Part shown: positions 9,491-20,533 of the stretch, piece by piece | How the letters are laid out: the number at the start of each line of letters is the position of its first letter | Numbering within the stretch: the first letter of the stretch is position 1 | DNA from: a virus | Reading direction: 5' to 3' (one strand) | Length of the DNA stretch: 25,709 nt | Virus record (IMG/VR): IMGVR_UViG_3300026114_000013 | Coordinates: 1 to 25,709 of that record | Notes under the pieces: model-generated | What the model was told of the DNA's origin: nothing | What the model saw: the letters and a program-made list of their open reading frames with translations, nothing else | The model's database searches: none | Made by a program: the position numbers and the translations under genes

Positions 9491-9829
9491 TTATTCAACA
9501 AAAGTAGCTTGATTTTCTGTCTCGTGACTCTGTTCGTTTTTATATGAAATTTTTTCAGTATAGCCACCCCTCGAAGCATTGAGGGTGCCAGATGGAGACG
9601 CGCCTTGTCCGTGTTCTTGTTCGGCTTCTTCTTGCTGGCGCTTTTCTTCCAGAAGTAAAACCTGTTTCTGGAAAGGGGTCATGTCAAGTTGTGAATCGCC
9701 AACTATTCCCCTGTCGTACTCTTTTTCAAGTATCGCAACCTCAGCCGCGAATCCGCTATCTACGAAAGTTTTCTGCTTTCTCGTCGTCGTCAGAAATGTC
9801 CAGCACGTCTTGAGCAATTTCGAGCGTTA
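9491..9829 (-). CDS. Tail assembly chaperone, frameshift extension (GT-type)
   Basis: An open frame of about 110 codons bounded upstream by TAA near 9830 and ending at 9491. It has no ATG and no Shine-Dalgarno near its beginning; only a TTG at 9817 could start it, and the residues from there to ~9764 (LLKTCWTFLTTTRKQKT) are the out-of-frame reading of the upstream gene. Past the junction it reads VDSGFAAEVAILEKEYDRG, then MTPFQKQVLLLEEKRQQEE and a polar C-terminus. I interpret it as the T extension of a G/GT tail chaperone, made as join(10223..9765, 9763..9491), about 243 residues in total. It helps the tape measure and tube subunits assemble and is absent from virions in known systems. Reading frame is +1 relative to the upstream gene. 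Confidence 0.72.
9756..9829 (-). promoter_or_regulatory. Probable programmed +1 (or -2) ribosomal frameshift window
   Basis: In this ~74-base window both the chaperone frame and the extension frame are open. The coding-strand stretch GAA AAC TTT C GTA GAT sits at 9773..9758. A one-base forward slip at TTT (9767..9765) onto TTC lets translation proceed with GTA at 9763 and bypass the TAG at 9758. A -2 slip, as in Mu-like phages, would reach the same frame. A -1 slip, the lambda type, would not. No strong stem-loop is evident by eye downstream. Confidence 0.6.
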
Positions 9830-10223
9830 GACCGTCTCGGAGTCCAATATTTTCTTCTTCGTCGTCAAAAATACCGAAGACCTGCTCCATTTCTTCATCA
9901 CTCATACCATCAGCGTCACACATAGACTGGTCAATGCCTTCGATAGCAGCGCGGGCCATGAGAACCACAAACTCCTGGTCGAGCTTCGCAGGGTCAATGT
10001 CACCTCCCTCGCGGCTCTCTTCAATCTCTTCAGTCGCATCTTCAATATCCATTCCAAACTTCGACTGAAGCGTACCAGTAATAGGAATTAGGCGCTGGTC
10101 TTCAAGCGGCCCAATTCCGAGCCGCATAGTTTCACCGAAATACTCGTACTCGTTTTCTTCTCTGTATTCTTTACCACGGATAGCAAGTTCTTTGAGGCGG
10201 GGAATATTGGCTTTGTCAGACAT
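9756..10223 (-). CDS. Tail assembly chaperone (G-type)
   Basis: A protein of 155 residues between the tail tube and tape-measure genes, the fixed position of gpG-type tail chaperones. It is acidic and mixed alpha/beta: RLKELAIRGKEYREENEYEY, then GIGPLEDQRLIPITGTLQSKFG, then a helical C-terminus (LDQEFVVLMARAAIEGIDQS; EEMEQVFGIFDDEEENIG). It ends KAENFRR at TAG 9758..9756. Just before the stop, codon TTT (9767..9765) is followed by C, so Phe-tRNA could re-pair from TTT to TTC and continue in the +1 frame into the extension at 9491. The leader GAATTAGCTAATT precedes ATG. It interacts with tape measure and tube proteins during assembly. Confidence 0.8.
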   Translation of the reverse strand: MSDKANIPRLKELAIRGKEYREENEYEYFGETMRLGIGPLEDQRLIPITGTLQSKFGMDIEDATEEIEESREGGDIDPAKLDQEFVVLMARAAIEGIDQSMCDADGMSDEEMEQVFGIFDDEEENIGLRDGLTLEIAQDVLDISDDDEKAENFRR

Positions 10224-12009: not shown

Positions 12010-12513
12010 TTAATTTACAATGTCAAGTTCTGTTGTAACTTCTTCAATATTCTCGTAATCAGAATCTTCCAAAATTAAGGAAGTAGTGAACGTAGCCGCC
12101 TGATTAAATTCGCTCTCAGACGGATTAACAAATTGGTGCGAAATTCCACCGCCGCCGTTCAAATCGACGCTGGAGATGCTATTCGAAAGCATTGAGGGGC
12201 GTGTAGACAACCTCATCAACTCTTTTTTGAGCTTATCATGAAGCTGACTGCCCTCTAATTCCCCACTGCCTCTTACCATAAAGGAAACTCGACACTCATA
12301 CGGAATTCTGTAAATCCGCGCTGCCTCGTCTCCTTGGTCGTCATAGACAGAAGTGAGGTAGTTATTTAACGACCCATCCATGTGCGTAGCGTTCCAGTCT
12401 TCAATTATTACACCCGGAACAGGCCGCTGGTCGGAACCTGAAACCAGTACTTCAGTAGAAAGCTGTGTGTCCAGATGTGACTGGAGAGCAGAAATTAACT
12501 CAGTTACTTCCAT
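12010..12513 (-). CDS. Tail terminator / tail completion protein
   Basis: A protein of 167 residues immediately upstream of the sheath gene. It starts with a helix (MEVTELISALQSHLDTQLSTEV), has strands with VPGVIIEDW and IYRIPYECRVSFMVRGSGE, a second helix (SQLHDKLKKELMRLS) and then C-terminal strands (AATFTTSLILEDSDYE). This alpha-beta order fits the tail terminator/completion (gpU, gp15-like) families, which cap the tail and bind the head connector. The call rests on pattern and position; sequence identity to a named family was not tested. The leader TATAGAATT precedes ATG. Confidence 0.65.
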   Translation of the reverse strand: MEVTELISALQSHLDTQLSTEVLVSGSDQRPVPGVIIEDWNATHMDGSLNNYLTSVYDDQGDEAARIYRIPYECRVSFMVRGSGELEGSQLHDKLKKELMRLSTRPSMLSNSISSVDLNGGGGISHQFVNPSESEFNQAATFTTSLILEDSDYENIEEVTTELDIVN

Positions 12514-12517
12514 AATT

Positions 12518-12712
12518 CTATACCGACCGCGTTAGATTGTCTTCAATAGCCTTCTTGACCAAGAGTGGTCCTTGCTGTTTCATTCTCGATTCGGCTGCTT
12601 CGGAGAAATCCACGCCCTCAATGCCTTCTTCATAGATTTTTTCTTGGAGCCAGAAGGCTTTTCGGACTGTCTCTTCGCCGTGTTCTTCAATAAGCTCGTC
12701 AATAGTGGGCAT
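12518..12712 (-). CDS. Small neck-region protein of unknown function (64 residues)
   Basis: The protein is 64 residues long, starting MPTIDELIEEHGEETVRKAFWLQEK and ending AIEDNLTRSV. It is helical and acidic, with no Cys or membrane segment. The ATG overlaps the upstream stop as TAATG, so it is co-translated with the 101-codon gene. Its G+C at 12601..12660 is 47%, back to the ordinary level after the AT-rich gene upstream. It lies between the neck protein and the tail terminator, so it may be a minor connector or assembly factor; no family is recognised. Confidence 0.7.
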   Translation of the reverse strand: MPTIDELIEEHGEETVRKAFWLQEKIYEEGIEGVDFSEAAESRMKQQGPLLVKKAIEDNLTRSV

Positions 12713-13002
12713 TATATTTCAAATTCTTCTCTCTTTTCAGGAAATACAAGATAATAAGGGTGGTCTAGATTTTCAATCAATGTACCTCCAAATTCAATAT
12801 CTCCTTCTTGTCTTTCTGTTATACTGTCAGATAAAGACCCTTCATCATAAGAAGTGGCTGTTATGGTATAAATAGAATCATTGGGAGCAAGAAGATTTTC
12901 AACATGATTTTTGAAATCAAGAGTTTCGTAACTCCAAGTTTTATCGCTTATACTTCCGGCTATTTCGCCAGTTTCGATATTTCTAATTGCTGCTCTTGTC
13001 AT
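12712..13002 (-). CDS. Protein of unknown function downstream of neck-peptidase fusion
   Basis: The start is set at 13002 because the ATG overlaps the stop of the 994-residue gene as ATGA; an ATG at 13017 would add five residues. The 96-residue product starts MTRAAIRNIETGEIAGSISD and contains SYETLDFKNHVENLLAP, SIYTITATSYDEGSLSDS and HPYYLVFPEKREEFEI. It appears beta-rich and moderately acidic and has no known motif. Base composition is AT-rich (12721..12780 is 30% G+C), like the C-terminal part of the 994-residue gene and unlike the gene after it, which suggests both were acquired together. It could be a partner, chaperone or inhibitor of the peptidase domain; that is inference only. Confidence 0.75.
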   Translation of the reverse strand: MTRAAIRNIETGEIAGSISDKTWSYETLDFKNHVENLLAPNDSIYTITATSYDEGSLSDSITERQEGDIEFGGTLIENLDHPYYLVFPEKREEFEI

Positions 13003-15983
13003 TTGACACTCACCCACTCCATTTGTTCAAATGCGTTTCTTCTATAAGTTACACCATCTTCCATTGTAACTTCTATTTTACCAGAAGAATTTTCTTCTAT
13101 CTTTTGAATAGTGTCTACTGTCTTCATTTCTGGCTGACCCAAATCTACTCCAATAGATGCTCCGGGTTCTAATTCATCAAAATTTTCTACTCGCTCTTTA
13201 TTTTCTGAATATTCTTCCCAAAACAGATACATCCTTGGAGATTTAAATTTTAGCCTGTCAGGTTTTTCTACATAATATCTGTATGAGACAGCCAATTTTT
13301 CAACTCCGTGTTTTCTTTCGTATTCTCTAAGTTCGGTATAGTTTGGATTTTCTTTATGCTCTTCCCAAGCCTTTCTGAGATAACTCAAAGCTTCTTCTGC
13401 TTCATCATCGACAACTGAAGAGTCAATACCAAGCTCAATATCTAATATGTCCTTGTCTAAGTTGTCGTCATTGTAAGTGCTATTATCAAATCCAAGACCG
13501 AGCAGATGATGAACTTCGTGACCCACTTCGTGAGCCATAGTAGATTTTATTTCTTTTCTACTTCTGTGTACTCCTAATCTAATTCTGTTTTTATTTGAAT
13601 TGTGGTCGCCTGCTTTATAGCTTCCAGTAAAATCTTTAGCAATAACTTTTTCAATATTCGCTAATACGTGTGAACCTATTACTGGATTTATGTCTTTTAC
13701 AACTTTGTCATAAGAGGCAAATACATCACTAGCTTGTGAACTACTGACTCCAAATTCTTTGTATTCTACAAAATCGCTCACTTTAGCTCTAAATGTGTTA
13801 GAGCTAGCATACATTGGAACTTCTTCTGTATCATTTCCTAGAAGTAGATATGCTTGGAGTATTTCAGCTTGTTCAGGGCTTATATTATCTCCAGTAGATA
13901 TTTCTTCTTTTATTTCATCTGGAGTAGCTTCATTAATATATTCAAACCAATCAGAAGATATTGTCTGATTATTATCTAAGCTTTCATCAGTAGAATTTTG
14001 AGGTACAGGGAGGTCGTATTCATTAGGAGTTTGCTGGTCTATTTCTTTTCCAACTATTTTTATCTTATAAGTTGGATTCTCATTTGAAACAGAAGATTGT
14101 CTATATGGTTTTTCAGGATGACCCCCAACTTTAGTATAGGTATTAAATCTATCAGGAACTACAGTTATGAACTTTCCTTTTCTGTAATCCCAAGCTAGAT
14201 ATTCTTTATCTTCTTCAGCATCTTCGTATACTTGTTTAGTGTATTCTTCAAATTTATCTGGTAGAGAGTAATTTTCTGGTAGCTCATTTTCTTTTCTCCA
14301 ACTAGTATCTTTAGAGATATTTTTCAGAGTTTTAGCTTCTATTCTTTTAGCTCCGTCTTCTTCACTAAATATTTTTATTTCACCCAATTGGTACGACTTG
14401 TAATCATCTTTTCTCTCTATAAATCTACCAGTAACCTCTTCACCAGTTATTGTTTCGCCGGTTACTTTATCTCCAACTTGGAGAGTTTTAGCGTTCCAAA
14501 CAGCGGGGTCTTCAGAACGAGTCCCAATAAATCCTTCAAAGGATGCGTCTCTAATTTGAAGATTGCTAGCTTGGTGAGTTTCTATAGCTACTTCTCTAAA
14601 TCCTCCCGAATCAGTTCTTACATTAGCTACTTTAGCTCTTATTATTTTATCAGAAACATTAGGATTGTCAAAATTCCAGTCTTCATATGCACTATCAGCG
14701 TATGGATATTTGCCAATATCAAGGATTATTTCATCCCCTTTTTCTACTTTCATCCAGCGTTCAAGCTCATCTGGTACTCCTTCTAACTCCCAATCTGCAT
14801 CTTTTACATCGGAAGCGTCGTCAAATTCGAATCTTAATTCATTTCCATCAGCATCGAGGCCAGCGTCAAAAGCATAAGTTTTTGCTTGAATGTAACCGTC
14901 TACGAGATTGGCAACGTATTTATCACCATCACTATCTTTTATTACTACTTCACTGGCAAAATCAAGATTACTACTGTATAACTCTTTTATTAAGTCTTTG
15001 TCTATAGTAGAAGGAGTAGTAAATCTTTGAGGAGCTTCTGGACCAGATGCTATATCAACTTCTTCAGCCCAATCATCTCTTTCTTCTCTAAGCCCGTATA
15101 GATTTCTGGACTTGGTTGCATCTACGGTATAAAATCCACCAAATCGTTCTTCAAAGTAGTCTGTTACCTTATAAGCAGATTTATTTCCATCTCTGTCATA
15201 ATCTATCCGCTCTATGACTCCGTAAATGGGTCTATCAAGACTTTCTTGACCTACTCCACGAGCAGCATCATAGAAAATAGCTTCATCTCCTTCTTCAAGT
15301 TCTCTGATTGTAGTTTTGTCTTCCCGAGCTATTATCTGCTGTCGGTAATAGTCAAGATTTATTTCAGTTTCTAAATCAGTATAAAGAACTTTAACAGAAT
15401 TATTTTCAGAATCTATTTCAGTTATAGTTGCTTCAAAAGTATTTGAGCCGTTATCATAAATAACATCAACGTCTTTAGCTAATTTTTCTGTGTCTTCTAT
15501 CCGTTCTTTTCTATATTTATCTTTAACATCATACTCTTCTAATGGACGGAAATAATCAGAGTCTCCATCATCAAAACCAGAAGAATCAAAATCTGAGTCT
15601 AAATCCCAACCACCCATACGCTCTTCAACGTATTCTATCATCTCTTCGATGGGTGGCATTGAATCTGTATACGCAAACGGTGTGTCACGACTCCGCTCAG
15701 TACCAGAAACACCTTGGTCTACGTAAGCAGCGTAATCAAGTGGATTAGTAATGTGACCTTGAATTTCATCTCCCAAATCGAATTGATGATGGTCAAAAGA
15801 AGAGTGAAGATGTGGAGTAGTATACGGAGTCCGTCGCTGTAAAATTCTTTCTACAGCAGCTTCTTGGCCGACAGATAGAGCATCATCGAGGCCCTTCTCA
15901 GCCCCGTCGTGGACTCGCTCTTTAATTTTCTCTACCGTAATTTCGATAGAGTCCCAATCGACCTCGAATTCAATGTCACCCAT
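12999..15983 (-). CDS. Neck protein fused to beta-domain repeats and a zincin-type metallopeptidase
   Basis: A protein of 994 residues. Residues ~1-120 (IEITVEKIKERVHDGAEKGL, TPYTTPHLHSSF, YAAYVDQGVSGT) match HK97 gp10-type neck/tail-completion proteins, which are usually ~110-150 residues long, and the gene sits in that position. The rest is an extra ~870 residues: several SH3/KOW-like beta units (VGDKVTGETITGEEVTGRF; KGDEIILDIGKY; final LEPGASIGVDLGQPE) and then HEVGHEVHH at 818-826, with a likely third ligand Glu895 in EKLAVSYRYYV. HExxH plus a downstream Glu is the zinc-peptidase signature. The extension is AT-rich (27-30% G+C in counted blocks at 15481 and 14281), while the neck part is about 45-48%. 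It may be a cargo enzyme carried in the virion. Confidence 0.8.
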   Translation of the reverse strand: MGDIEFEVDWDSIEITVEKIKERVHDGAEKGLDDALSVGQEAAVERILQRRTPYTTPHLHSSFDHHQFDLGDEIQGHITNPLDYAAYVDQGVSGTERSRDTPFAYTDSMPPIEEMIEYVEERMGGWDLDSDFDSSGFDDGDSDYFRPLEEYDVKDKYRKERIEDTEKLAKDVDVIYDNGSNTFEATITEIDSENNSVKVLYTDLETEINLDYYRQQIIAREDKTTIRELEEGDEAIFYDAARGVGQESLDRPIYGVIERIDYDRDGNKSAYKVTDYFEERFGGFYTVDATKSRNLYGLREERDDWAEEVDIASGPEAPQRFTTPSTIDKDLIKELYSSNLDFASEVVIKDSDGDKYVANLVDGYIQAKTYAFDAGLDADGNELRFEFDDASDVKDADWELEGVPDELERWMKVEKGDEIILDIGKYPYADSAYEDWNFDNPNVSDKIIRAKVANVRTDSGGFREVAIETHQASNLQIRDASFEGFIGTRSEDPAVWNAKTLQVGDKVTGETITGEEVTGRFIERKDDYKSYQLGEIKIFSEEDGAKRIEAKTLKNISKDTSWRKENELPENYSLPDKFEEYTKQVYEDAEEDKEYLAWDYRKGKFITVVPDRFNTYTKVGGHPEKPYRQSSVSNENPTYKIKIVGKEIDQQTPNEYDLPVPQNSTDESLDNNQTISSDWFEYINEATPDEIKEEISTGDNISPEQAEILQAYLLLGNDTEEVPMYASSNTFRAKVSDFVEYKEFGVSSSQASDVFASYDKVVKDINPVIGSHVLANIEKVIAKDFTGSYKAGDHNSNKNRIRLGVHRSRKEIKSTMAHEVGHEVHHLLGLGFDNSTYNDDNLDKDILDIELGIDSSVVDDEAEEALSYLRKAWEEHKENPNYTELREYERKHGVEKLAVSYRYYVEKPDRLKFKSPRMYLFWEEYSENKERVENFDELEPGASIGVDLGQPEMKTVDTIQKIEENSSGKIEVTMEDGVTYRRNAFEQMEWVSVK

Positions 15984-18865: not shown

Positions 18866-20533
18866 TTAGCTGGCGACAACAAAAACGCCAACCTCAGAGG
18901 ATTCATCTTCAGAATAGTCAGTCTTCAGACCGCCTTCATCATATCCAGCCGGGAAAGGAGTAGTCGAAAATTCACGCAACTTTCCATCAACTAGCTCTGT
19001 TTCGCCGTCGTCGTTAACTTCAGACTCGTACTGATTACCAAATCCAACAGAGCCGTCAGTTAACGTCGGAGGGTCGAACGTGAGCCGACTAATAATTTCA
19101 TTATGAGTCTGAGAACCAGTATTGTACGCTCTAGCCATGAGCATTAACTTATTCGTACTATCGTTGAACCACACGTCTTTAACAAATCCAATCTGAGAAA
19201 GTGTCTGTTTAGTGTGGTCCATAATGTACGGCGGATTATTCGAGTAATCTTTCTCAGCTACATTCTGAAGGAAATCTTTAGTAATTCGAACACCATTTCG
19301 GTCTTCAGGTGGTCCAGGTTCCATTGCTTCGAAAACAGCATCGACCGAAACTAGGTTTCCATTGTCGTCATAATTCTCTCTGATTCCGTGTTCATTAAAA
19401 TCTTGAACAATTTCTTTCCGCTTCGGTGAAATAGCCGAAGCAGCAAACGCTATTTTGGAATCATCGAGGGAGGCAGAATTCTCTTGCTCAGGCTTCGGGT
19501 CGCCTTCAGGAAGTGAATCGAACGGATTATACGCCCAGTTGAGCAGACTTACAGCCCACTCACTCGGACACGTCCCTTTGCCACCTTCAGATGGACTATC
19601 GGGCCGCTGACCTTTCATTCGGGAGATGAAAGAAACAGTTCTTTTAGCGTCGTCTATGTCTCTCTGTGTCCAGTCAGACTTATTCTTTTCAAGCAACCTC
19701 ATGTTGCGCTTACGAACTGCTTCAGGGTCTTTCGAAGCAGTATCAGCGCAAGGATGCTCAGACCACCTCTCCAATTTAGAAGCGGTCATATTAACTTTTT
19801 CAGACCACTTTGAATATACTTCATCTAGCTCTTGGCTGTCAGAAGCAAATTCAACAGTATCTACACTCTCACTGAAAGTTGGATTTCCACTTGGGGATTC
19901 ATCAAAAGGATTTATACCCCTGTTGAGCATTTTCACAGCTAGTGGAGCAGGACACGTACCTTCGCCGCCGCTTGGAGCATTATCAGGAAGGTCGTCGATG
20001 TGCTTTCTTGCCCAAGAAACTATTCTGTTGGCAATTCGATAAGATTCTTCGTTCCAGCCATCAGGAGCTTGGCCCATGAGCATCATGGTGTTGTCTCTCC
20101 AATCTGAGCCATTGTCAACACCTACATCAGAGCATGGGTGTTTTTCCCACATCTCCATTTCTTCTTCGCTCATATTGACGAGACTATCCCAAGCCTCGAA
20201 AATTCTGCTTTTATCCATTTCAAAAGTCATGGATAGAGCAGCGCCTTCAATGTCGCTCGAATTCTGAGGTCCGGCCCAAGAACTTACAGAACTTTCAGCC
20301 TTAGCAACCATCTGTCCTGTAAATTCGCCGCTATCAGAATCGTATTCTTCCATCTTGTAGACGTTTTCACCATCTTCACCAGTAACTTTATTTCCGTCTA
20401 CAGTAAAAGAATCTTTAGTTCGGCCACGAATTTCGCCATACACATCGGCTCCATCCCAAGACCACTTGACCCACTCACCAGTATCAAACTGATAAGCAGC
20501 AAAATATAGTTTTTCAATAGTTAAATTAGACAT
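18866..20533 (-). CDS. Prohead protease with duplicated HPC domain
   Basis: A protein of 555 residues. Residues 1-85 form a tudor-like beta domain (WVKWSWDGADVYGEIRGR, then VYKMEEYDSDSGEF). Residues ~122-211 and ~251-339 are two copies of a domain marked by W-x-x-HPC-x-D, a mid-domain helix, GG-x-GTCP-x-x-x-AV-x-x-LN and NPFD; the Cys/His are H132, C134, C194 and H260, C262, C322. Residues ~365-545 are the maturation protease: MDH with His440, GSVGFG with Ser495, and LREFSTTPFPAGY, matching HK97-type S78 proteases, which are normally ~180-250 residues. It cleaves scaffold and capsid at maturation. The first three domains are extra. ATG follows the 82-residue gene's stop by one base. Confidence 0.8.
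   Translation of the reverse strand: MSNLTIEKLYFAAYQFDTGEWVKWSWDGADVYGEIRGRTKDSFTVDGNKVTGEDGENVYKMEEYDSDSGEFTGQMVAKAESSVSSWAGPQNSSDIEGAALSMTFEMDKSRIFEAWDSLVNMSEEEMEMWEKHPCSDVGVDNGSDWRDNTMMLMGQAPDGWNEESYRIANRIVSWARKHIDDLPDNAPSGGEGTCPAPLAVKMLNRGINPFDESPSGNPTFSESVDTVEFASDSQELDEVYSKWSEKVNMTASKLERWSEHPCADTASKDPEAVRKRNMRLLEKNKSDWTQRDIDDAKRTVSFISRMKGQRPDSPSEGGKGTCPSEWAVSLLNWAYNPFDSLPEGDPKPEQENSASLDDSKIAFAASAISPKRKEIVQDFNEHGIRENYDDNGNLVSVDAVFEAMEPGPPEDRNGVRITKDFLQNVAEKDYSNNPPYIMDHTKQTLSQIGFVKDVWFNDSTNKLMLMARAYNTGSQTHNEIISRLTFDPPTLTDGSVGFGNQYESEVNDDGETELVDGKLREFSTTPFPAGYDEGGLKTDYSEDESSEVGVFVVAS

What the first reader, a model, noticed from the sequence alone, without database searches (positions are those of the whole stretch)
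12712..15983. Neck protein carrying an inserted metallopeptidase cargo with an adjacent partner-like gene
HK97 gp10-like neck proteins are about 110-150 residues. Here the same N-terminal ~120 residues are followed by ~870 more: several SH3/KOW-like beta units and HEVGHEVHH (818-826) with a later EKLAVSYRYYV that can supply the third ligand (Glu895). The G+C of counted 60-base blocks drops from 45-48% in the neck part (15601, 15901) to 27-30% in the extension (15481, 14281), stays at 30% in the following 96-residue gene (12721), and returns to 47% in the next gene (12601). Composition therefore marks one AT-rich unit: peptidase extension plus small gene. I infer a virion-borne peptidase, comparable in logic to effector domains fused to MuF-type portal-associated proteins, with a possible dedicated partner. 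Caution: the baseplate genes are also AT-rich.
Basis: partly seen in the sequence, partly recalled or inferred. Interest (0 to 1): 0.78.

Follow-up and report, generated by a model that had tools for sequence, protein, structure and literature searches.

The report
Archaeal virus neck carrying swappable effectors
In this salt-loving archaeal virus, a small protein that sits where the virus head meets its tail carries a large, swappable enzyme-like cargo (here a predicted metal-dependent protease) with its own small partner gene, which looks like a toxin-and-antidote cassette delivered into the host during infection.

Summary
Window 12999-15983 (-) encodes a 994-residue protein: an HK97 gp10/tail-completion (neck) domain (1-126), an SH3-like region, and a HEVGH zincin (H818, E819, H822, E895). 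A translationally coupled 96-residue gene follows. Short forms exist (12 loci, 0 with a partner gene), and other long forms carry different cargos. All 18 cassettes with an enzyme-like cargo have a small downstream gene. Two contigs 99.8-99.9% identical to the window upstream carry an unrelated cargo and partner from codon ~131 on, so cassettes are swapped. Relatives that fuse the neck domain to the downstream 64-residue protein show that the cargo sits at a split in the neck protein. The commonest cargo is a related zincin that shares the window's HExxH...Y-x6-E motif. Its partner also occurs as an orphan gene in haloarchaeal chromosomes. The same zincin is fused to eCIS/T6SS leader domains beside a small partner. 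Best reading: a polymorphic effector-immunity cassette whose carrier is the tail-completion protein that, in phage 80alpha, caps the leading DNA end. Injection, toxicity and immunity are inferred, and the peptidase fold prediction failed.

The parts
15606..15983 (-). Neck (HK97 gp10 / tail completion / Ne1) domain, residues 1-126 of the 994-aa protein: the conserved carrier
   Evidence: phrog_5 Neck1 match 8-91; homologous to HRTV-27 gp16 139-aa short form; alignment A1 with 9 diverse necks
12719..15590 (-). Exchangeable cassette: segment without similarity to L004/L010, which are 99.8-99.9% identical upstream and 91-92% identical downstream
   Evidence: blastn break-points at reverse-strand 10119 and 12992
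13944..15551 (-). Spacer region of predicted SH3/KOW-like beta units (residues 145-680), shared in part with HF2-type, L012 and L003 necks
   Evidence: blastp to L012 337-834 (30%, E=3e-43) and to HF2-type 691-988 (E=1e-6 to 3e-9); SH3-like fold only modelled in relative HRTV-25
13230..13826 (-). Predicted zincin metallopeptidase domain (residues 720-918)
   Evidence: PF06114 E=3.4e-4; tblastn/blastp to HVTV-1 gp113 and HCTV-1 gp106; profile match to class-B zincins, prob 86%, E=5e-6
13518..13532 (-). HEVGH zinc-binding motif, residues 818-822
   Evidence: H818, E819 and H822 invariant in HVTV-1/HCTV-1
13299..13322 (-). Y888-x6-E895 motif, candidate third zinc ligand (E895)
   Evidence: Y-x6-E-x2-[AST] downstream of HExxH in 18 of 18 zincins; 0.19 expected per 250 aa by chance
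13002..13196 (-). C-terminal beta-rich tail of the cargo (residues 930-994)
   Evidence: strands E320-344 in the low-confidence model; inference only
12712..13002 (-). 96-aa partner gene (putative immunity/inhibitor), ATGA overlap with the cargo stop
   Evidence: no relatives found in phages, viral contigs or 294 haloarchaeal genomes; position and coupling like those of 17 other cassettes
12518..12712 (-). 64-aa protein: split-off C-terminal half of the neck protein, cassette boundary
   Evidence: fused to the neck domain in L045, L046, L047, L055; phrog_5 match spans both halves in L045/L046
15989..16354 (-). SPP1 gp16-like stopper / head-completion protein, conserved upstream flank (context)
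   Evidence: tblastn to 49 halovirus records, annotated as such there
12010..12513 (-). SPP1 gp17-like tail terminator, conserved downstream flank (context)
   Evidence: phrog_12281; synteny with HRTV-27/HRTV-25 annotation

Best explanation
The gene pair is a polymorphic effector-immunity cassette carried by the neck (tail-completion) protein of a Hafunaviridae-like haloarchaeal myovirus. The neck protein is split: its N-terminal half bears the cargo, and its C-terminal half is the following 64-aa gene. Cargo plus a small partner gene fill the split. Shown by sequence: the architecture, the short and fused forms without cargo, the cassette swapping, the cargo diversity, the link between partner and cargo, and the conserved catalytic motif. 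Inferred: the neck protein sits in the neck lumen at the leading DNA end, as in phage 80alpha; the cargo enters the host with or ahead of the DNA; the zincin cleaves a host target (for example a defence or regulatory protein); the partner neutralises the zincin in the producing cell until it is packaged.
For: Swapping: 99.9% identity to L010 over 7.8 kb, ending at neck codon ~131, then a different cargo and partner, then 91-92% identity. Insertion point: neck and 64-aa domains are one protein in four loci. Partner association: 18/18 enzyme-like cargos versus 0/12 cargo-less necks, Fisher p=1e-8 without phylogenetic correction; 12 of 18 pairs overlap by exactly 4 nt (coordinates). Partner type tracks cargo type: class-B partners form one family (leave-one-out E 2e-5 to 1e-11), while the partners of the window, L012 and HSTV-2 do not match it. 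Cargo and partner diverge far faster than neck and sheath (HRTV-25 vs L049: 39/42% vs 80/79%). Orphan class-B partners lie in haloarchaeal chromosomes away from any cargo (L112, L113, L114, L117; an extra copy in L116). The same zincin is fused to an eCIS_core/DUF4157 leader beside a small gene (L119, L141); DUF4157 toxin-immunity pairs were shown to act in Haloferax volcanii (PMC11566945). Other cargos imply a cytoplasmic target: a PI3/4-kinase-like cargo in HSTV-2 (E=1.5e-5) and ART-like motifs in L012 and L054 (pairwise E=1.6e-4). Location: the 80alpha tail-completion protein is a monomer inside the neck capping the DNA end (PMC11661146).
Against: No virion proteomics was found for any of these proteins; HF2's four major bands (23-72 kDa, PMC7230728) are too small for the 1037-aa neck protein, though one copy per virion would be missed. 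The structure of the window's peptidase was not predicted. The window's own partner has no detectable relatives, so its immunity role rests on analogy. HVTV-1/HCTV-1 carry the related zincin without an obvious small partner. Two long necks (HF2 type; L054) have no partner. A ~100-kDa extension is hard to fit into a neck lumen. The swap evidence comes from metagenome contigs, although two contigs show the alternative cargo and L002 shows the window's cargo.
Confidence: 0.62

Rival explanations
1. The small partner is a loading chaperone or adaptor that keeps the cargo folded or docks it to the tail, not an immunity protein; the cargo is an injected effector all the same.
For: Strict coupling and co-variation with the cargo fit a dedicated chaperone equally well. 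A lytic virus has less need of immunity than a temperate one; HF1-group proviruses exist (PMC7230728) but the window's lifestyle is unknown.
Against: Orphan partner genes in chromosomes without any cargo nearby are what immunity genes do; a chaperone has no use without its client. The related zincin of HVTV-1/HCTV-1 manages without a small neighbour.
Confidence: 0.2
2. The extension is a virion-surface or neck-collar structure whose peptidase acts outside or during entry, for example on the S-layer or for self-processing, like polyvalent-protein peptidases proposed to process their own polypeptide.
For: SH3-like beads look like a rod or spacer; zincins in polyvalent phage proteins were proposed to process multidomain polypeptides (PMC5512222); haloarchaea have S-layers (general knowledge).
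Against: In the window and the class-B cargos the zincin is the only enzyme recognised, so there is nothing else to release; the same slot holds kinase-like and ART-like domains that need ATP or NAD+; a surface enzyme needs no co-varying partner nor orphan partners in chromosomes.
Confidence: 0.13
3. The extension is a fast-evolving structural decoration with no enzymatic role, the HExxH being incidental.
For: HF2-type necks of 1037 aa keep a long extension with no recognised enzyme and no partner.
Against: HExxH plus Y-x6-E-x2-[AST] is kept in 18 of 18 zincins although most are otherwise very divergent; the same domain is fused to toxin leaders.
Confidence: 0.05

Closest known systems
MuF polymorphic toxins of temperate phages (Jamet et al. 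2017, PMC5576092)
   Same: A conserved virion protein with variable C-terminal toxin domains (20% of the putative MuF toxins had a metallopeptidase domain; ART and RelA-like domains also frequent) delivered by the particle.
   Different: Carrier is the neck/tail-completion protein, not the portal-associated MuF protein; host is an archaeon; cargo is inserted at a split in the carrier; that paper mentions neither archaea nor neck.
HK97 gp10 / lambda gpZ / SPP1 gp16.1 / 80alpha gp51 tail-completion proteins (PF04883, PMC11661146)
   Same: Same N-terminal domain and same genome position between stopper and tail terminator.
   Different: Carries about 870 extra residues; its C-terminal half is a separate gene. 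Eleven PF04883 hits in 195 haloarchaeal genomes lie in frames of 108-267 aa, none long.
Haloarchaeal T6SS/eCIS DUF4157 toxin-immunity pairs (PMC11566945)
   Same: Class-B zincin plus small downstream gene occurs behind this leader too (L119, L141), and DUF4157 toxins with downstream partners were toxic and neutralised in Haloferax volcanii.
   Different: Leader is eCIS_core instead of a virion neck domain; whether any tested H. borinquense toxin is this zincin was not tested here.
HF1/HF2 Nep1 divergence (Dyall-Smith et al. 2020, PMC7230728)
   Same: They noted that two proviruses match HF2 nep1 only in the first 387 nt, the Ne1 part.
   Different: They called it curious and offered no function, cargo, partner or split-gene explanation.
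Polyvalent proteins (Iyer et al. 2017, PMC5512222)
   Same: Large virion-delivered proteins rich in zincins, ARTs and other effectors.
   Different: Not described there with neck carriers; the text searched has no 'neck'.

Membership tests
HK97 gp10 / tail-completion (Ne1) family | Sequence match to the family profile | tested here: met
   Window neck: phrog_5 E=0.0074 only; homologous short form in G139 passes the PF04883 cut-off (26.5 bits vs 21.4) and the HRTV-27 relative is annotated HK97 gp10-like.
HK97 gp10 / tail-completion (Ne1) family | Gene position between stopper and tail terminator | tested here: met
   Order stopper - neck - 64 aa - terminator - sheath in the window and relatives.
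HK97 gp10 / tail-completion (Ne1) family | Location in the neck lumen, one copy | not testable with these tools
   Known for 80alpha only (PMC11661146).
Polymorphic toxin systems | Conserved N-terminal carrier with exchangeable C-terminal effector domains | tested here: met
   Several cargo types on one neck domain and a swap between near-identical viruses.
Polymorphic toxin systems | Cognate immunity gene immediately downstream | tested here: inconclusive
   A cargo-specific coupled gene is present; immunity activity not tested.
Polymorphic toxin systems | Orphan immunity genes | tested here: met
   Class-B partners alone in four or five chromosomal loci; none found for the window's own partner.
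Polymorphic toxin systems | Demonstrated toxicity | not testable with these tools
   Needs expression in a haloarchaeon.
MuF polymorphic toxins | N-terminal MuF (Mu gpF/SPP1 gp7) domain | tested here: not met
   No MuF match; carrier is Neck1 type. It may work like a MuF toxin but is not one.
Peptidase family M78 (IrrE/ImmA, PF06114) | Score above the curated cut-off | tested here: not met
   20.9 bits vs 22.
Zincin-like metallopeptidases | HExxH plus a third ligand | tested here: met
   HEVGH and E895 conserved in relatives; Y-x6-E motif in 18/18. Motif-level only.
Zincin-like metallopeptidases | Zincin fold | tested here: inconclusive
   Model confidence too low, pLDDT 37.
eCIS/T6SS DUF4157 effectors | eCIS_core (PF13699) leader | tested here: not met
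   Absent from the window protein, present on homologous class-B zincins in G046.

The most novel reading that the evidence does not exclude
Haloarchaeal tailed viruses use the protein that plugs the neck and caps the leading DNA end as a general carrier for exchangeable toxins. The toxin-immunity modules are shared with the hosts' own contractile injection systems, and host chromosomes keep stray antidote genes against what the viruses inject.
Probability: 0.5. Interest if true: 0.88.

Novelty: new variant of a known kind. Interest (0 to 1): 0.76.

Why it matters
It would add a new carrier (the neck/tail-completion protein) to the list of ways viruses deliver protein effectors, and extend virion-borne polymorphic effectors with antidotes to viruses of archaea. 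It explains an unexplained observation in HF1-group viruses (nep1 diverging after 129 codons). It also links viral cargo to the hosts' T6SS/eCIS toxins and makes a testable claim: stray partner genes in haloarchaeal chromosomes should protect against specific viruses. The module could be tested in Haloferax volcanii.

Tried and rejected
1) The partner as one shared adaptor for all cargos: looked plausible by eye (W-x-Y-x-G motif), rejected because the class-B partner profile does not significantly match the partners of the window, L012 or HSTV-2 (E 0.06-0.8; the window's 6.5 bits was reached by 3 of 500 shuffles, so a very remote relation is not excluded). 2) HF2-type necks as a dead zincin (HQYGE at 415): no profile support (prob 0.1-0.4%), dropped. 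3) Structure of the window peptidase with HVTV-1/HCTV-1 as alignment: failed; whole-protein alignment misplaced the peptidase and was not used. 4) Structure of HRTV-25 neck plus cargo: pLDDT 51, only the SH3-like part and C-terminus usable. 5) Solved-structure sequence searches gave nothing. 6) Search of host genomes for the window's own partner and peptidase type: two weak peptidase hits, one an eCIS zincin (L099/L119), the other an unrelated DUF7289 protein (L100/L120); no partner. 7) Bacterial relatives of the neck domain (P12024S, Anabaena phage YongM2) have ordinary short necks. 8) Cargo-partner co-divergence beyond vertical descent: rank correlation 0.59, but most of it disappears when sheath divergence is held constant (partial 0.26), so it adds little.
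Full report
WHAT IS THERE. The window is a 25.7-kb virus contig with a haloarchaeal myovirus gene order on the minus strand: terminase, portal, protease, major capsid protein, a 144-aa protein, SPP1 gp16-like stopper, the 994-aa protein, a 96-aa gene, a 64-aa gene, tail terminator, tail sheath. Gene order and best matches are those of Hafunaviridae isolates. The 994-aa protein starts with a neck domain (phrog_5 'tail completion or Neck1'; relative of HRTV-27's HK97 gp10-like protein), continues with spacer units also found in HF2-type necks and in L012, and has a HEVGH zincin domain at about 720-918 (PF06114 E=3.4e-4, just below cut-off). The 96-aa gene overlaps its stop by four bases.

SHORT AND FUSED FORMS. 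I collected the neck locus from isolates, viral contigs and haloarchaeal chromosomes by anchoring on the 64-aa protein, the stopper and the sheath. Necks without cargo exist: HRTV-27 (139 aa) and L056, L059, L061, L065, L079, L080, L081. In L045, L046, L047 and L055 the neck domain and the 64-aa domain form one protein of about 195-205 aa. The 64-aa gene is therefore the C-terminal half of the neck protein, and the cargo with its partner occupies the split. The phrog_5 profile also spans both halves in L045 and L046, weakly. Other HK97 gp10-like proteins in 195 haloarchaeal genomes sit in frames of 108-267 aa.

POLYMORPHISM AND SWAPPING. On related neck domains I found: the window's zincin; a second zincin class (class B) in fifteen loci; a PI3/4-kinase-like cargo in HSTV-2/HCTV-6 (E=1.5e-5); ART-like motifs in L012 and L054 (pairwise profile E=1.6e-4); and the HF2-type extension of unknown function. 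The cleanest evidence is DNA: contigs L010 and L004 are 99.8-99.9% identical to the window for up to 7.8 kb upstream, to neck codon ~131, then carry an unrelated extension (1,158-aa protein in all) and a different 94-aa partner, and match again at 91-92% from the end of the small gene onward. L002 carries the window's cargo up to the contig end. Dyall-Smith et al. (PMC7230728) had noticed that HF2 nep1 and two proviruses agree only over the first 387 nt, without explaining it.

THE PARTNER. Every one of 18 distinct enzyme-like cassettes has a small downstream gene of 76-125 aa, 12 of them with a 4-nt overlap; none of 12 cargo-less loci has one (coordinates). These loci are related, so the Fisher p of 1e-8 overstates independence. 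Two long necks lack a partner: the HF2 type and L054. Class-B partners form a family that detects each member when left out (2e-5 to 1e-11), whereas the partners of the window, L012 and HSTV-2 are not significant members. Cargo and partner evolve much faster than neck and sheath (39/42% versus 80/79% identity between HRTV-25 and L049).

ORPHANS AND eCIS LINK. A profile of class-B partners matches in 10 of 394 haloarchaeal genomes (one of them, G361, looks spurious). Four have proviral cassettes. Others stand alone with no neck or zincin gene within several kilobases (L112, L113, L114, L117), plus an extra divergent copy 17 kb from the cassette in G299 (L116) and a proviral remnant with a truncated 64-aa gene (L115). 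In G046 the class-B zincin is fused to a full or partial eCIS_core (DUF4157) leader twice, each time followed by a 91-93-aa gene only marginally similar to the partner profile. In Halogeometricum borinquense, DUF4157 proteins were toxic to Haloferax volcanii and neutralised by the downstream gene (PMC11566945). Whether those toxins are this zincin was not tested here.

ACTIVE SITE. H818, E819, H822 and E895 are invariant in HVTV-1 gp113 and HCTV-1 gp106. All 18 zincins checked (window, HVTV-1, 15 class-B necks, one eCIS fusion) keep Y-x6-E-x2-[AST] after HExxH; chance gives 0.19 per 250 residues. The window and class-B profiles align around HExxH with probability 86%. The fold itself could not be predicted.

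HOW IT MOST LIKELY WORKS. In phage 80alpha the HK97 gp10-type protein is a single copy inside the neck, capping the DNA end and touching the tape measure (PMC11661146). By inference, cargo attached to that protein would leave with the genome and act in the host cytoplasm. This fits the kinase-like and ART-like cargos, which need cytoplasmic cofactors. The partner would hold the cargo inactive in the producing cell. Steps shown: architecture, swapping, coupling, conserved motif, orphan partners. Steps inferred: virion location, injection, toxicity, inhibition, target.

COMPARISON AND NOVELTY. The logic is that of MuF polymorphic toxins, but the MuF domain is absent, so it is not a member. Among the open-access papers searched I found no report of a neck or tail-completion protein as carrier of exchangeable effectors (find-in-paper). 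I rate it a new variant of a known kind.

Noticed in passing
window 18866-20533 (-): The prohead protease is 555 aa; about 330 N-terminal residues precede the protease part and hold two similar units, one matching DUF3140 (PF11338, E=7.8e-7 at 243-313). Relatives are about 210-390 aa. Another structural/processing gene with an added domain.
   Followed up: partly
window 9491-10223 (-): Two overlapping ORFs (9756-10223 and 9491-9817) in the tail assembly chaperone position; relatives HRTV-25 and HRTV-27 are annotated with a putative programmed -2 frameshift here.
   Followed up: no
L119 and L141 (genome G046): A haloarchaeal genome with 18 eCIS_core (PF13699) matches carries two eCIS_core-zincin proteins (one with a partial leader, one broken by a frame change), each next to a 91-93-aa gene.
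   Followed up: partly
L116 6736-7047 of its reverse complement (genome G299): A second, divergent class-B partner gene about 17 kb from the proviral neck cassette, near a tail-fibre gene resembling the window's 1939-2889 gene; possibly extra immunity within one provirus.
   Followed up: no
L013, L041-L044 (HF2, HRTV-5, HRTV-8, HRTV-10 and others): HF2-type necks have a 1037-aa protein with an extension of no recognised enzyme, HQYGE at residue 415 and no partner gene; its role is unexplained.
   Followed up: partly
L006 and L063 (HVTV-1, HCTV-1): Druskaviridae keep a zincin protein related to the window's cargo, with a zeta-toxin-annotated giant and a MuF-type gene close by; a possible second effector depot near the portal.
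   Followed up: no
L012 7376-11680 and 11683-12060: A 1434-aa neck with an ART-like motif and a kinase-like C-terminal motif (not confirmed by profiles) plus a 125-aa partner unlike all others.
   Followed up: partly
L140 (genome G068): Proviral remnant with zincin, partner and a truncated 64-aa gene but no neck domain at the start of the frame.
   Followed up: no
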